A DNA stretch of 44,497 nt, taken from positions 1 to 44,497 of the IMG/VR virus record IMGVR_UViG_3300025930_000021, one strand, 5' to 3'. Positions within the stretch are counted from its first letter, which is position 1. Each line of letters starts with the position of its first letter. Below the pieces are notes generated by a model, which worked only from the letters and a program-made list of their open reading frames with translations, did no database searches and had not been told where the DNA came from. The position numbers and the translations under genes were made by a program. Source of the DNA: a virus. Below are positions 2,239-36,366 of this stretch, one piece after another.

Positions 2239-3636
2239 CTATTTGCTGTATTGTTCGATCAGTTCTTTGGCCGATTTCGGCTTCGTGGCCGGATTCGGCG
2301 CCGTCGCCCGCTTCTCGAACTGCGTCACATCGTAGTTCGCATCCTTGAGCGCGTCGAGGATGTTCTGCTTCTTCTGCTGGAGCAATTCGCGCAGGCCGAG
2401 CAGTTTCGCCTTGGCGACCTCCGGCGGATCCCCGATCGTTGGCAGGATCTTGGTGTATTTGATCTCGTCCTCTTTCCGGAGCACGCCGCCTTCCAGTGCC
2501 TTCCCGATCATCTGCTTGACCCGGTCGATCACGCCCTGCCGCGCCTTCGATTCGGCACCGACTCCGGTGTATTCCGTGATGGGATTCGGCACGTAAGATC
2601 CGAGCCATGACCCAGCTCCGGTCTTCCCGACTTCCTGTTCCAGTGTATTGAGGTTGTCGAGAGACGTGTCGATGTCGGCAATGCGGCCCGCATCGCCAGA
2701 CGTGACTTGCCGCCCCTGCTCGCGGGTTGTCGCGGGCGTCTTGCCTTCCGCAGCCGACCGCTTCACGAGCACTGGCTTACCGTCTGGTCCCATAATGGCG
2801 ACCAGCGGCTCTTTGTCCGAACCGACCACTGACGGCTCCCGGCCGGCCTCGGACGCCTGCCGCTTCAATTTCAGCAGCCGGTTGAGTTCCTGCGGGTTGT
2901 TCCGAGCCGCAAGAATAGCGGCATCGATGCTGCCAGGTTCGCCGGCCGGCTTCGGCACCTCCGGCAGCGAGGCAATCGGCTGCCCTGCTGGGTCGAAGCG
3001 GGTCTGGCCTGGACTGAGCGAGAACCCGGCCGCCGGCGGCCCCTCAGCCGCCTTCTGCGCCGCTGTGTCGGCCTGCTGCTGCTGCGGTGACTTGAATCCG
3101 GCGATGATCTGCTGGATGGCCTCCGGACCGGCCGCCGCGCGTTGTCGCAACTGGTCGGCCGGGAAGTCGGGGAAGTGGCTCTGGATGGTCCCGAGCGCGA
3201 ACTCGAACACCTTCGGATCGTAGTTCGACTTTTCGACCATTTGCAGGAACGGCTCCGCGTAGTCCTGCCCCTTCTTCGCGATATTAGCCTTCAACTCCTC
3301 GGCCCGCAGCTTGTCGGCCGCGATGTCGGAAGCGACCTTATCGAGTTCCATCCGCTGTTTCTTGAACGAGGCGAGCAGTTCTGGCACTTCAGCCTGAATC
3401 CGCGCTTCAGCCTCATCCGGCGTGCGAGAGGCGGCGATGATGGCGTAGAACCGCTGCTGCGCCTGTTCCTCGCGTGCCTGTGCGTCGATCTTCTGCCGCC
3501 GCTCATCCTCCAGCGCCTTGTTCGAGTTGATGACTTGCCGCTGCCCCTGCAACTGCTGCATCTGCGCGAGGATCTCGAACGGATTATTGAACGGCTGCGG
3601 CTTGACGCTGAGCGGGATAGAGGAATCGAGCGGCAT
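2239..3636 (-). CDS. Coiled-coil ejection-type internal virion protein
   Basis: The protein has 465 aa, with no signal or membrane segment. The N-terminal 140 residues are charged and helical (ALEDERRQKIDAQAREEQAQ), suggesting a coiled coil. The middle is Pro/Gln/Ala-rich and probably flexible. The last 150 residues (INTLEQEVGKTGAGSW-like, then RKEDEIKYTKILPTIGDPPE) are helical again. It lies between the Q/N-rich protein and the Gly-rich membrane protein, separated by 3 and 2 bases, so the three are co-transcribed and likely leave the capsid together ahead of DNA. The exact P22 counterpart (gp16 or gp20) is not decided. Confidence 0.6.
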   Translation of the reverse strand: MPLDSSIPLSVKPQPFNNPFEILAQMQQLQGQRQVINSNKALEDERRQKIDAQAREEQAQQRFYAIIAASRTPDEAEARIQAEVPELLASFKKQRMELDKVASDIAADKLRAEELKANIAKKGQDYAEPFLQMVEKSNYDPKVFEFALGTIQSHFPDFPADQLRQRAAAGPEAIQQIIAGFKSPQQQQADTAAQKAAEGPPAAGFSLSPGQTRFDPAGQPIASLPEVPKPAGEPGSIDAAILAARNNPQELNRLLKLKRQASEAGREPSVVGSDKEPLVAIMGPDGKPVLVKRSAAEGKTPATTREQGRQVTSGDAGRIADIDTSLDNLNTLEQEVGKTGAGSWLGSYVPNPITEYTGVGAESKARQGVIDRVKQMIGKALEGGVLRKEDEIKYTKILPTIGDPPEVAKAKLLGLRELLQQKKQNILDALKDANYDVTQFEKRATAPNPATKPKSAKELIEQYSK

Positions 3637-27558: not shown

Positions 27559-29106
27559 TCAGCTCCCCCAGAGGATGTTGCAGACTGCGAAGAAGAACCA
27601 CATCGCCATCCATCCCTGTCCATCCGGGTAGTGGACCGGGCGCACGATCGGCTTCGCCTGGTCCGATTTCGGCCGCACCTTCTGCGCGAATGTCAACGCG
27701 AGGGCATCCCCATCGTCCGGAGAGGCGACCCCGCGCTTTTGCATGTCTTCCTTGGATTCTAGCACGAGCTGGTTTTTCCGCGAGATGTGGTAGCCCGGCG
27801 CCTCCAAGTCGTCCTGGAGCCGCTGGTCCTTCTCTGGGATGGCGCCGCGGGGAAGCCATTCCTTCATCGAGCGCCACATGTAGGCCCGCTGGTTGCCGTC
27901 GTGGTCATCAACCGATGGCCCGCCGAAGTTGACCTCATGGACCTGCGTGTAGCCCATGTTTCGCAGCCGTTCCACGATCACCGCCCCGAAGGCCGAGTCG
28001 ATGAACATCGCGTCGATGTCGTGGTCGTTCAATGCGTTGGCGAGCTTCGAGACGAGGAGCTGGCGGTCGTTGGCGACCGTCTGCTGACCCGTAAGACGTA
28101 TTGGCGGGATGGTCCGTGCATCGTTACCGCGACGGAATCGAGCGACAGACCATGCTGAGCCGCCACCTGAGACATCGACGCCAACCACGAGCGGATCTCC
28201 TGACACTGCCTGCACAGCGTTCCGTGTAGCACTCTGCACGCGCACATGGTCGATAAACTGGAGTTCGTCCGCGTTCGGCGGGAGCCCTTTAATGTGGACC
28301 CGGCAGTAGTCGCAGTCTTCCCCGCCATACGTCTCCTCCCACTGCTTGTAGAGCGACAGCGTGACCTCGCTGGTCACGACATCGTAGCCGTTGATCACCC
28401 GATGATTCCACAAGTCGCGCTCTGACCCGAACACGGCGCGATGGAGCTGTCCGGAGCGCCGCGAGCACTGCCCGAACACGAACTGCATCGGCTCGCCGTC
28501 GAGTTCAATCCCGCGGCCCTTCTCGAATATCTCCTCTGGAATCGTTCCGCCCTCATCAAAGAAATTCGCCGTGGTGGAGAACTTGTTGTGCCACCCGGCA
28601 AACGCCTGTGCGTTCTCTGGCGCGCACGTCGTGCGAACCCCGAACCAGTTCGCCCGGTCGCCCACGGCATACATCATTTCGCTGTTGATCTTCCAGCGAT
28701 TTGCCGTCAGCTTCATGTTGTTCCACTTTGTGATTTCAGGCCACGTCGTTGTTTCGAGTTGCGTGACGGTGTTCGCGGTCACGCGGCACTTTGAATCCGG
28801 CCTCGTATCAAGAACCCAATGCCACAGCCACGCGAGCAACGCCGTCTTCCCAGGCCCAACGCCACTGGAGATGGCAATTCTGATCGCGGGAACCACATCC
28901 ACGCCGTTGAATCGGTGAAGTCTCACCTCGGCGCCAATGTCGAGCATCACGTCGCGCTGCCACGGCTTCGGGCCAGTCGATCCAGAGAGTTGCCCTTCGC
29001 CCCAGGCCCAGCAGCCTTCGACGTAACGCAGCGGGTTGTCGTAGCAGGAGGCGAGCCACGTATCGAGTTCAGCCTCGAATGCGACGGCGTCTTCGACGTT
29101 GCTCAC
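27559..29106 (-). CDS. terL: Terminase large subunit
   Basis: The protein has 515 aa. The ATPase part has Walker A GVGPGKT (82-88), preceded by IAISS, and Walker B FFDEGG (D184, E185). The RNase H-like nuclease part has VVGVDVSGGG (D311), AMFIDSAFG (D370) and SPDDGDALALTFA (D464, D465, D467), the expected three-metal-ligand spacing. It pumps DNA into the procapsid and cuts the concatemer. Its ATG overlaps the upstream small gene, and TerS lies 575 bases upstream. Type by sequence (headful or cos) cannot be settled by eye; the permuted contig fits headful packaging. Confidence 0.92.
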   Translation of the reverse strand: MSNVEDAVAFEAELDTWLASCYDNPLRYVEGCWAWGEGQLSGSTGPKPWQRDVMLDIGAEVRLHRFNGVDVVPAIRIAISSGVGPGKTALLAWLWHWVLDTRPDSKCRVTANTVTQLETTTWPEITKWNNMKLTANRWKINSEMMYAVGDRANWFGVRTTCAPENAQAFAGWHNKFSTTANFFDEGGTIPEEIFEKGRGIELDGEPMQFVFGQCSRRSGQLHRAVFGSERDLWNHRVINGYDVVTSEVTLSLYKQWEETYGGEDCDYCRVHIKGLPPNADELQFIDHVRVQSATRNAVQAVSGDPLVVGVDVSGGGSAWSVARFRRGNDARTIPPIRLTGQQTVANDRQLLVSKLANALNDHDIDAMFIDSAFGAVIVERLRNMGYTQVHEVNFGGPSVDDHDGNQRAYMWRSMKEWLPRGAIPEKDQRLQDDLEAPGYHISRKNQLVLESKEDMQKRGVASPDDGDALALTFAQKVRPKSDQAKPIVRPVHYPDGQGWMAMWFFFAVCNILWGS

Positions 29107-29258
29107 GAGAATTTCTTCGTGCCGGTGAGACGGGCGGCTTGTTTCCGGTTATGCGCGAGTCGTGCTTCTGGATTCTGGTGATTGATCTTGTGAAGTCGTC
29201 CAATCGCCCGCATTTTGCGAATGAACAACATTGAACCCTTCGATACCCTAGCGGCCAT
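29103..29258 (-). CDS. Small basic protein before TerL
   Basis: The protein has 51 aa. The ATG at 29258 follows GGAGAA with a 5-base spacer. It is very basic and contains MRAIGRLHKINHQNPEARLA and HNRKQAARLTGT, suggesting nucleic-acid binding. Its stop overlaps the TerL ATG (ATGA). Not recognised as a family. Confidence 0.55.
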   Translation of the reverse strand: MAARVSKGSMLFIRKMRAIGRLHKINHQNPEARLAHNRKQAARLTGTKKFS

Positions 29259-29338
29259 CGTATTCTCCGTGCAAACCTGTCTCGAATTGCACACCTGCGG
29301 CCCGCGCGTCCGGTTTACCGTGGATGTCGGAGGTGCTC

Positions 29339-29425
29339 ATGATCGAGTGGTTCTTCGCGTTTCTCACGTCCTACTGGCCCGACACCGATTGCGTGAACGA
29401 CGGCGAGTTCAATTCCTGCGGCTGA
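29339..29425 (+). CDS. Cys-containing membrane-type microprotein 1 (opposite strand)
   Basis: The protein has 28 aa: an aromatic, hydrophobic N terminus (MIEWFFAFLTSYW), then PDTDCVNDGEFNSCG. The ATG is preceded by GGAGG with a 5-base spacer, and 25 of 28 codons end in G or C. It is encoded on the plus strand inside the minus-strand packaging operon. The next gene encodes a protein of the same layout. Two cysteines nine residues apart could form a disulfide outside the cytoplasm. Its function is unknown. No clear promoter was found. Confidence 0.7.
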   Translation: MIEWFFAFLTSYWPDTDCVNDGEFNSCG

Positions 29426-29688
29426 GAGGAGACATTATGTTCGATTGGCTGACGACCGTGTTCCACTATTTCTGGTATGACGAGCCGTGCTGGGACGACG
29501 GCTCCGGCGTCTGCACGTAGCCCGGAGGCCGGGATGGGGGTGGCTCTGTCCCGGCGTCTCTCGGCGTGCCAGCGGCGCATGCCTTCACTCACCAGCTCAC
29601 AGAAGGCACGGTCGCGCACTTGCGCGCGGGTCGCTCGACTGATGGCGCGCTTCGCCTCGGACGTGTGATGCCAGCCCGACCTAGCCAT
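29371..29688 (-). CDS. Basic protein with NUMOD3-like motif, downstream of TerS
   Basis: The open frame encodes 105 aa. The ATG at 29688 overlaps the TerS stop by 8 bases and has GGAG 8 bases upstream. The first 45 residues (MARSGWHHTSEAKRAISRAT; FCELVSEGMRRWHAERRR) resemble the short basic DNA-binding repeats (HTSEAKRAIS) seen beside homing endonucleases. The last half is antisense to the two microproteins, and its third codon positions there are poor in G/C (about 12 of 27 across microprotein 2). So only the N-terminal half looks like conserved coding sequence. Confidence 0.5.
   Translation of the reverse strand: MARSGWHHTSEAKRAISRATRAQVRDRAFCELVSEGMRRWHAERRRDRATPIPASGLRADAGAVVPARLVIPEIVEHGRQPIEHNVSSQPQELNSPSFTQSVSGQ
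29437..29520 (+). CDS. Cys-containing membrane-type microprotein 2 (opposite strand)
   Basis: The protein has 27 aa: MFDWLTTVFHYFWYDEPCWD followed by DGSGVCT. It shares with microprotein 1 an aromatic hydrophobic start, an acidic residue before the first Cys, a [DN]DG step and a second Cys near the end. The ATG follows GAGGAG with a 5-base spacer. Of 27 codons, 24 end in G or C, and this pattern is specific to this frame rather than the antisense one. It starts 11 bases after microprotein 1, so the pair is probably co-translated. Function unknown. Confidence 0.7.
   Translation: MFDWLTTVFHYFWYDEPCWDDGSGVCT
29521..29533. other. Short hairpin after microprotein 2
   Basis: CCCGG-AGG-CCGGG directly follows the microprotein stop codon: a perfect 5-bp stem with a 3-base loop. 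No T-run follows on either strand, so it is at best a weak terminator or an mRNA end-protecting hairpin. Confidence 0.35.
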
Positions 29689-30115
29689 CTTCCCCACTCC
29701 TCGCGAGCGCCGAGCGTAGCCGCGCCTTCCGCGCATCCAGATCCTCAATCACGACATGATCCTTCAGCATGCCCAGTGACCGCGCGCACAACTCCAGCGC
29801 CTTGTCCTTTGACCAGAGTTTGATTTCCACCGTCGTGTCCTGCTCGCCATCACCAGCGGTCAGGTTCTCGGTCCGCACCTTGATGCTCGAGATGGCCCGC
29901 TGGAACTCCTCCGGCATCGCCTTGATTTCGCGCAGCGTGAAGCGCCGCCGATTGCCGTGCACGCCCTCGAACGCTTGGATGATATTGGAGAAGGCGAGGT
30001 AGCGCAGCTCTTGCTCGACCCGTTCGCGGGTGAGCTTGTTCTTACTGCCCTTCGGACGGCCAGGACCACCAGTGGTCGGAAAGCCAGCTCGCTTACCAGG
30101 ATTTGGATTTGCCAT
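29681..30115 (-). CDS. terS: Terminase small subunit (probable)
   Basis: The protein has 144 aa from the ATG at 30115; a TTG at 30130 would add 5 residues. The N terminus is Gly/Pro/Lys-rich (GGPGRPKGSKNKLTRERVEQ), a common start of phage small terminases. Then come helices (LRYLAFSNIIQAFEG, AISSIKVRTENL) and WSKDKALELCARSLGMLKDH, a pattern of the TerS oligomerisation part. It is the first packaging gene after the origin-like region and precedes TerL by two small genes. It would recognise the packaging site on phage DNA. Confidence 0.75.
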   Translation of the reverse strand: MANPNPGKRAGFPTTGGPGRPKGSKNKLTRERVEQELRYLAFSNIIQAFEGVHGNRRRFTLREIKAMPEEFQRAISSIKVRTENLTAGDGEQDTTVEIKLWSKDKALELCARSLGMLKDHVVIEDLDARKARLRSALARSGEDG

Positions 30116-30149
30116 TGGCTTAGCTGTCAAGAATCATGCCATAGAATTT

Positions 30150-34559: not shown

Positions 34560-34780
34560 AAGCCTATGTTGCCGTCAAGCACAGCAAGGATGGAGACTGG
34601 ATCAGCGTGAAGGATTTCCAACTCGTGTGCGACGAGAGGAATGCGCTGATGACGGCACTAAAAGCCCTCGTGGCCGAGACTGAAGCTAAGGACAATCCGA
34701 GTGATATGGGCGTGTCTAGAGACGAGCCCGTCATGGTCGCCGCGCTCGCGGCGATTGCGAAAGTTGAGGCTACGCGATGA
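34556..34780 (+). CDS. Small soluble protein
   Basis: The protein has 74 aa. It has no Cys cluster or membrane segment. Features are YVAVKHSKDGDWISVKDFQL and a helical stretch ALMTALKALVAETEAKDN. It is coupled by ATGA overlaps at both ends, just upstream of the exonuclease. Not recognised. Confidence 0.65.
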   Translation: MKAYVAVKHSKDGDWISVKDFQLVCDERNALMTALKALVAETEAKDNPSDMGVSRDEPVMVAALAAIAKVEATR

Positions 34781-36366
34781 GCACCGAACTGCTCCTGATC
34801 GATTTGTCCTCCATCGCGCACTCGCTGTATCACCAGAGCGCGAATGAGCCAGACCCGAACTGGACGGCGAACCGCACCGTGGCGCGCGTCCATGCGCTGA
34901 ACAACGGCAAGCAATCAGGCGTGGCCGTCTGCCTCGACACGCCGCCCTACTTCCGAAAGGACATCGATCCGGCCTACAAGGCGAACCGGCAGAAAGAGCA
35001 CAACGCGGCCGTGGCGCATCAGATTGCGGTCGCGGTCGATGCGCTGAAAGCCGACGGCTTTCCGGTGTGGGGAGCCGCTGGCTATGAGGCGGACGACATC
35101 ATCGCGACGGGTGTGCGCCTGTCCAATGGAAAAAACAGAGACATCGGCGAATCTCTCGCTGGCGCTCGCGCCGAAACGCCTTGGCTCGTCCAGAATGATG
35201 TTGTCATCGCCTCGGCCGATAAGGATCTGCTCCAACTCGTGAGCGACCGCGTCACCGTGCAGAGCCTGAAGAGCGGCGACCGACTCGATCCGGATGCCGT
35301 GAAGGCGAAGTTCGGCGTGTGGCCGCATCAGATGGTCGATTACCTCGCGCTCGTCGGAGACACCAGCGACAACGTCCAAGGCGCCAAGGGCATCGGCGCG
35401 AAGCGAGCCACGGAGATTCTCGAACTGTTCGGCAACCTCGACGATGCGATGAAAGCGACGCGAGAATCGGTCGATGGCGTTGATCCGGAAGGCGTGCCCA
35501 GTATCAGCCGGTCATTGATCGCATTCGAGCCGCGACTGAACACCGTGCGGGAACTGATTCGCCTGCGGACCGATGCGCCGATTCCATTCGATGAGATTTT
35601 CAAGGAGCGACAGCCTGTGACGACGGAAGGATTCGAAGATGACCGAGAGCCGATGGACGAAACGCGACCTGTGGATCGTGGAGCAAGCCCTGAAGTGCCT
35701 GCACCGCATCCAGTCCACGACACAGAAGGCCTCAGCGCAATCAAAGCGTTCCAGAACGTCATCCCAACGGAAACGCCGCGAGAAGTCAAAGCTGCCATTG
35801 ACGTGATGATGGCACCGGCCAAGCCGAAGCCTGACGGACCTCCGGAATCAACCGCGCTGGCCGTCGTGGAGTGGGACCGCCAGCTCGAGCCGCGCGACAT
35901 GAAACAGGCGTATTGGATCGCGCAGCAGTTGTTCCAGTCGAAGCTGTTCGCCGCCTACGGCACGCCGGCTGCGGTCCTCTCGACCATCATGGCCGGCCGT
36001 GAGATGGGCTTCTCGACGATGGCGAGCCTGCGGGCGTTCCATATCATCGAAGGCAAGCCGACGATGAGCGCCGGCGCCATCCACTCGCTCGTGCTGAAAT
36101 CAGGCAAGGCGAAATTCTTTCGCTGCGTGGAGCGGTCTGCGACCAAGGCCGTGTTCGAGACACAGCGCGGCGACGATCCGCCGTTCACGATGGCCTACAC
36201 GATCGAAGAGGCGCAGCAGGCGTGGTCGAAGGATCAGTCGGCCTGGAACCGCAGCGGATGGGGCAAGCACCCGGCCGACATGCTGATCGCCAGATGCAGC
36301 AGTAAGCTGGCGCGGCTGGTCTACCCGGACGTGTGCCACGGTCTGTATTCCGAGGAGGAGATGTGA
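34777..36366 (+). CDS. 5'-3' exonuclease joined to a RecT-like annealing domain
   Basis: The protein has 529 aa. Residues 1-280 are a FEN/T5-type 5' exonuclease: D9, D54, YEADD (E104, D106, D107), SADKD (D148, D150), VGDTSDN (D195, D198) and an H3TH helix GAKGIGAKRATEIL. Residues 287-355 form a Pro/Glu-rich linker. The rest (AGREMGFSTMASLRAFHIIE, PTMSAGAIHSLVLKSGKAKF, WGKHPADMLIARCSSKLARL) matches a RecT-like single-strand annealing family of phages. So end-resection and strand annealing sit in one chain, like lambda Red in one polypeptide. A GTG/ATG at 35803/35806 could also start the second half alone (186 aa). Confidence 0.8.
   Translation: MSTELLLIDLSSIAHSLYHQSANEPDPNWTANRTVARVHALNNGKQSGVAVCLDTPPYFRKDIDPAYKANRQKEHNAAVAHQIAVAVDALKADGFPVWGAAGYEADDIIATGVRLSNGKNRDIGESLAGARAETPWLVQNDVVIASADKDLLQLVSDRVTVQSLKSGDRLDPDAVKAKFGVWPHQMVDYLALVGDTSDNVQGAKGIGAKRATEILELFGNLDDAMKATRESVDGVDPEGVPSISRSLIAFEPRLNTVRELIRLRTDAPIPFDEIFKERQPVTTEGFEDDREPMDETRPVDRGASPEVPAPHPVHDTEGLSAIKAFQNVIPTETPREVKAAIDVMMAPAKPKPDGPPESTALAVVEWDRQLEPRDMKQAYWIAQQLFQSKLFAAYGTPAAVLSTIMAGREMGFSTMASLRAFHIIEGKPTMSAGAIHSLVLKSGKAKFFRCVERSATKAVFETQRGDDPPFTMAYTIEEAQQAWSKDQSAWNRSGWGKHPADMLIARCSSKLARLVYPDVCHGLYSEEEM
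35639..35806 (+). CDS. Possible nested gene in the exonuclease-annealase linker
   Basis: In the frame one base off, the ATG at 35639 (GGAAGG 8 bases upstream) opens 55 codons: MTESRWTKRDLWIVEQALKC then LHRIQSTTQKASAQ and a Lys/Arg-rich tail. Third-position G/C is about 75% (87% for its first 31 codons) against about 55% for the host frame there. Its TGA overlaps an ATG of the host frame (TGATG, 35804-35808), which would allow re-initiation into the RecT-like half. A basic, nucleic-acid-binding microprotein is plausible; chance cannot be excluded. Confidence 0.4.
   Translation: MTESRWTKRDLWIVEQALKCLHRIQSTTQKASAQSKRSRTSSQRKRREKSKLPLT

What the first reader, a model, noticed from the sequence alone, without database searches (positions are those of the whole stretch)
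29339..29520. Tandem paralogous Cys microproteins on the opposite strand of the packaging operon
Two 28- and 27-aa ORFs each have a strong Shine-Dalgarno (GGAGG, GAGGAG) 5 bases before the ATG, 25/28 and 24/27 G/C-ending codons, and the same layout: aromatic hydrophobic start, acidic residue, Cys, [DN]DG, Cys. They lie plus-strand between TerS and TerL, where everything else is minus. Gene finders would drop them. They may be a small membrane or secreted toxin, signal or exclusion cassette; this function is inference.
Basis: partly seen in the sequence, partly recalled or inferred. Interest (0 to 1): 0.75.

Follow-up and report, generated by a model that had tools for sequence, protein, structure and literature searches.

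The report
Antisense microprotein pair in phage packaging operon
Between the two DNA-packaging (terminase) genes of an uncultivated phage sits a tiny, opposite-strand, two-gene unit that very probably makes two related 27-28-residue peptides with a greasy aromatic start and a two-cysteine acidic tail; no relatives were found, and what they do is not known.

Summary
ORF1 (29339-29425 +, 28 aa) and ORF2 (29437-29520 +, 27 aa) each have a strong Shine-Dalgarno site 5 nt before ATG and align without gaps over M1-G22. That similarity has shuffle p about 2e-5, while the DNA is only 55% identical. Tandem Shine-Dalgarno-led short-ORF pairs: 0 in 2.7 Mb simulated and 0 in 0.75 Mb real (both strands) sequence. 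Both ORFs have codon usage typical of this phage's genes; the overlapping minus ORF does not. A 12-bp hairpin that is strong only in plus-strand RNA starts 8 nt after ORF2's stop. The TerS-TerL junction is an accessory slot: 19 nt in the 73%-identical relative L161, up to 1.77 kb elsewhere.

So I read it as a translated, probably independently transcribed (moron-like) two-microprotein cassette. That is inferred, not shown: no promoter, no expression data, and no homologue in phage or plasmid records or in narrow motif scans of IMG/VR and GTDB genomes. Likeliest action: an aromatic N-terminal helix lies on the membrane interface and displays an acidic two-Cys loop to a host partner; exclusion, toxin and signal ideas remain untested. 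A minus ORF starting on the TerS stop codon overlaps the pair and is the main rival.

The parts
29339..29425 (+). ORF1, 28 aa: MIEWFFAFLTSYWPDTDCVNDGEFNSCG
   Evidence: SD GGAGG 5 nt upstream; codon score +16 bits
29437..29520 (+). ORF2, 27 aa: MFDWLTTVFHYFWYDEPCWDDGSGVCT, paralogue of ORF1
   Evidence: SD GAGGAG 5 nt upstream; codon score +13 bits; anchored similarity p 2e-5
29329..29333 (+). Shine-Dalgarno of ORF1 (GGAGG)
   Evidence: sequence
29426..29431 (+). Shine-Dalgarno of ORF2 (GAGGAG), immediately after ORF1 stop
   Evidence: sequence
29528..29555 (+). 12-bp stem, 4-nt loop hairpin 8 nt after ORF2 stop; candidate 3' end or terminator-like stem without U-run
   Evidence: plus strand -31.3 kcal/mol in 51 nt, z -3.1; minus strand -22.4; its G-U pairs form only in plus-strand RNA
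29107..29680 (.). Accessory slot between TerS and TerL in which the cassette lies
   Evidence: gap is 19 nt in L161, 15-29 nt in L168 and L169, 1044 nt in L001, 1766 nt in L221
29371..29688 (-). Overlapping minus ORF of 105 aa (rival gene or remnant); ATG overlaps the TerS stop, SD GAGGAG
   Evidence: codon score negative in both halves; no homologue
29103..29258 (-). Minus ORF of 51 aa, basic; stop overlaps TerL start (GTGA), SD GGAGA
29681..30130 (-). TerS (Terminase_2)
   Evidence: PF03592 E 1.3e-7; PHROG 51
27559..29106 (-). TerL
   Evidence: PHROG 2, E 2.4e-17; 73% identical relatives

Best explanation
A compact accessory (moron-like) cassette occupies the variable slot between TerS and TerL and is read against the late packaging operon. 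One short plus-strand transcript (SD-ORF1-SD-ORF2-hairpin) would make two diverged, duplicated microproteins. The aromatic N-terminal helix (about 13 residues, no K or R) would lie on the inner face of the cytoplasmic membrane, and the acidic C-terminal loop, closed by a Cys pair (disulphide or metal), would bind a host or superinfecting-phage membrane protein. Shown here: the ORFs, their similarity, gene-like codon usage, the strand-specific hairpin (by calculation) and the variable slot. Inferred: independent transcription, translation itself, membrane attachment, loop closure and the target.
For: Similarity 2e-5 and 4e-5 with only 55% DNA identity; no tandem SD-ORF pair in controls; codon log-odds +29 bits, 63rd percentile of the phage's own genes against 0.7% of off-frame stretches; synonymous-codon test 48th percentile of genes against 1.5% of off-frame stretches; hairpin 8 nt after ORF2's stop, in the most stable 0.1% of 51-nt windows and 9 kcal/mol weaker on the other strand; near-empty site in L161 and other content in relatives; interfacial dG -6.7 and -7.1 kcal/mol for residues 1-13, charge -5 for both; helix over the N-terminal part of ORF1 in a low-confidence single-sequence model.
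Against: No homologue found anywhere, so no test of purifying selection. No sigma-70-like promoter and no canonical U-run terminator in 29000-29800. The minus ORF 29371-29688, with its own SD and an ATG overlapping the TerS stop, covers most of the pair. The functional step rests on composition only.
Confidence: 0.55

Rival explanations
1. The pair is an accident: antisense open frames opposite a real minus-strand accessory gene (105 aa, 29371-29688) translationally coupled to TerS; their similarity and Shine-Dalgarno sites are coincidence.
For: Minus ORF starts on the TerS stop with SD GAGGAG; relatives fill the same gap mostly with same-strand small genes; no homologues of the pair.
Against: Minus ORF has off-frame-like codon usage (C half: only 2.6% of gene stretches score as low) and no homologue, while the plus frames score like genes; coincidence of two SDs, tandem order and similarity is below 1e-4; the hairpin is strong only in plus RNA.
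Confidence: 0.2
2. Type I toxin-like or lysis-related small hydrophobic peptides that depolarise the membrane, with translation controlled by RNA structure.
For: Size, tandem copies, hydrophobic start, strong 3' hairpin.
Against: Hydrophobic part is only about 13 residues, net charge -5, no K or R, no promoter for an antisense RNA found; toxins of this kind usually have a longer membrane span with basic residues (general knowledge).
Confidence: 0.1
3. A noncoding plus-strand RNA (antisense regulator of the packaging operon) ending in the hairpin, the ORFs being incidental.
For: Stable hairpin; antisense position.
Against: The whole 306-nt RNA is not unusually structured (z +1.25); no Rfam match; amino-acid similarity with 55% DNA identity and gene-like codons point to protein.
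Confidence: 0.1

Closest known systems
Phage morons / accessory genes between late genes
   Same: Extra gene unit in a variable slot (overlap to 1.77 kb among relatives), orientation unlike its neighbours, 3' hairpin
   Different: No promoter recognised, no U-run terminator; 27-28-aa products; lysogeny of this phage not established (integrase not sought systematically)
Predicted small phage genes (Fremin et al. 2022, cited in PMC11323111)
   Same: Very short, Shine-Dalgarno-led ORFs under gene-finder length limits
   Different: No homologous family found here, whereas such catalogues rest on conserved families (general knowledge); whether this pair is in the catalogue was not checked
Type I toxins (Ldr, Ibs, TisB; named from general knowledge)
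   Same: Tandem small hydrophobic peptides, structured mRNA
   Different: Acidic, two-Cys tail, no K/R, hydrophobic part too short to span a membrane, no antitoxin RNA found

Membership tests
Phage moron | Extra DNA present in one phage and absent at the same junction of a relative | tested here: met
   TerS-TerL gap 575 nt here, 19 nt in L161 with 73% identical TerL
Phage moron | Own promoter | tested here: inconclusive
   No sigma-70-like match; host and its promoters unknown
Phage moron | Own terminator | tested here: inconclusive
   Strong plus-strand hairpin at 29528-29555 but no U-run
Translated microprotein family | Conserved residues in homologues with synonymous bias | tested here: inconclusive
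   Only the two in-window paralogues; none in phages, plasmids, 80 TerL-related loci, IMG/VR and GTDB pattern scans
Translated microprotein family | Gene-like codon usage and ribosome-binding sites | tested here: met
Type I toxin | Membrane-spanning hydrophobic helix, commonly with basic residues | tested here: not met
   About 13 hydrophobic residues, charge -5, no K/R
Type I toxin | Antisense RNA antitoxin | not testable with these tools
   No expression data
Secreted signal peptide pheromone | Basic n-region and hydrophobic signal peptide, or cognate receptor/exporter nearby | tested here: not met
   No K/R in either peptide, so no basic n-region; neighbours are TerS, TerL, primase/helicase, portal

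The most novel reading that the evidence does not exclude
An undescribed family of two-Cys, K/R-free, aromatic microproteins encoded in tandem on the strand opposite a phage's packaging operon, in a slot that swaps its content among relatives, acting together (perhaps as a heterodimer) on the host envelope.
Probability: 0.3. Interest if true: 0.6.

Novelty: new member of a known kind. Interest (0 to 1): 0.4.

Why it matters
If translated, it adds an orphan microprotein pair below the usual gene-calling length (about 90 nt) that can be recognised in a single genome from paralogy, codon usage and a strand-specific 3' hairpin, and it marks the TerS-TerL junction of this phage group as a slot where small accessory genes, even opposite-strand ones, are exchanged.

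Tried and rejected
tblastn of the peptides against phages (both) and plasmids (ORF2 only): nothing above noise. Paralogue alignment scan and HMM search of 39,923 short ORFs from fetched loci: only the pair itself stands out. Pfam, PHROGs, NCBIfam: none (the Pfam antiholin match at E 0.22 is below its cut-off and not accepted). Leader-peptide attenuator (many W, F, C codons): rejected, as no plus-strand gene follows. Shared promoter motif elsewhere in the window: none convincing. tRNA and Rfam: none. A gene-insertion scenario (cassette splitting a minus gene whose ends would be the 105-aa ORF's N half and the frame at 29251-29340) is possible but codon scores do not support it. One script printed much of the phage window by mistake; it had no bearing on results.

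Full report
The sequence is as described. ORF1 (29339-29425 +) reads MIEWFFAFLTSYWPDTDCVNDGEFNSCG and ORF2 (29437-29520 +) reads MFDWLTTVFHYFWYDEPCWDDGSGVCT, 11 nt apart in different frames. GGAGG (29329-29333) and GAGGAG (29426-29431) stand exactly 5 nt before the ATGs. The neighbours on the other strand are TerS (29681-30130; Pfam Terminase_2) and TerL (27559-29106; PHROG 2). The window is an uncultivated virus record of 44,497 bases.

Is it more than chance? Short ORFs of 20-40 aa with a 5-nt Shine-Dalgarno match are rare: 8 in the window on both strands. No tandem pair of them appeared in 2.67 Mb of second-order Markov sequence or in 0.75 Mb (both strands) of real phage DNA. The peptides align without gaps from M1 to G22, with M1, W4, W13, D15, C18, D21 and G22 identical and the last Cys shared after a one-residue gap. 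Anchored at the start codon the similarity is matched by 2e-5 of composition shuffles and 4e-5 of random pairs of real short ORFs, although the DNA is only 55% identical. This fits an old duplication kept at the protein level, although two sequences cannot prove selection.

Coding signal. Codon log-odds of genes against the five wrong frames give +16.0 bits (ORF1) and +13.1 bits (ORF2); together they lie at the 63rd percentile of the phage's own genes and are reached by 0.7% of stop-free off-frame stretches. A test on synonymous choice only gives the 48th percentile of genes against 1.5%. The minus ORF that covers most of the pair (29371-29688) scores negative in both halves, has no homologue, yet starts on the TerS stop codon behind GAGGAG. 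It remains the chief reason for doubt.

Transcript signal. A 12-bp stem with a 4-nt loop lies at 29528-29555, 8 nt after ORF2's stop: -31.3 kcal/mol in 51 nt for plus RNA (z -3.1), -22.4 for minus, among the most stable 0.1% of 51-nt windows in the record. The stem uses G-U pairs that exist only in plus-strand RNA. There is no U-run and no recognisable sigma-70 promoter, so termination and independent transcription are inferred.

Site. In L161, whose TerL is 73% identical, TerS and TerL are 19 nt apart; a few other relatives have -6 to 29 nt (L168, L169, L211), the rest 218 nt to 1.77 kb of mostly same-strand small genes. None of the 80 TerL-related loci holds the pair. So the junction is an accessory slot and the cassette is a local occupant.

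Relatives. tblastn against 50,697 phages (both peptides) and 72,556 plasmids (ORF2), motif scans of IMG/VR and GTDB genomes, and profile searches gave no credible homologue.

Mechanism. Both peptides have charge -5 and no K or R, 7-8 aromatic residues, and a first 13 residues with calculated interfacial partitioning near -7 kcal/mol; AlphaFold2 on ORF1 with five upstream residues gives an N-terminal helix at low confidence (pLDDT 72). The most economical picture is a peripheral membrane helix carrying an acidic two-Cys loop as a binding tip. A membrane-spanning toxin, a signal-peptide pheromone and a leader peptide fit less well. Target and benefit are unknown; superinfection exclusion or host-envelope modulation are guesses that laboratory expression could test.

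Verdict. A real, probably translated, orphan two-gene cassette in an accessory slot; ordinary in kind (small accessory phage genes), unusual in orientation, paralogy and peptide composition.

Noticed in passing
L008:682-3156: TerL ORF appears interrupted by an intein-like insertion (C-WIAGTRVRT ... YANGVLVEN-C), with a second frame on the same strand (2391-3014) carrying HNH-like sequence.
   Followed up: no
window 29103-29258 (-): 51-aa basic ORF whose stop overlaps the TerL start (GTGA), with SD GGAGA; probably a small gene though its codon score is poor and no relative was found.
   Followed up: partly
window 29371-29688 (-): 105-aa ORF starting on the TerS stop; the first 47 residues look protein-like (HTSEAKRAISRATRAQ), the rest is antisense to the microproteins; possibly a gene truncated by the cassette.
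   Followed up: partly
TerS-TerL junction, L001, L004, L161, L221, L237 and others: Junction length varies from overlap to 1.77 kb among relatives, with differing small genes.
   Followed up: partly
window 34777-36366 (+): One ORF matches 5'-3' exonuclease domains at its N-terminal part and RecT at its C-terminal end; an apparent fusion.
   Followed up: no
L012:4653-4760 (+): A 35-aa SD-led ORF without K or R, acidic and Cys-rich (MTSFAVEAYDVYDPFDDDEPLECGLETPEVCESCQ), no sequence relation to the pair.
   Followed up: no
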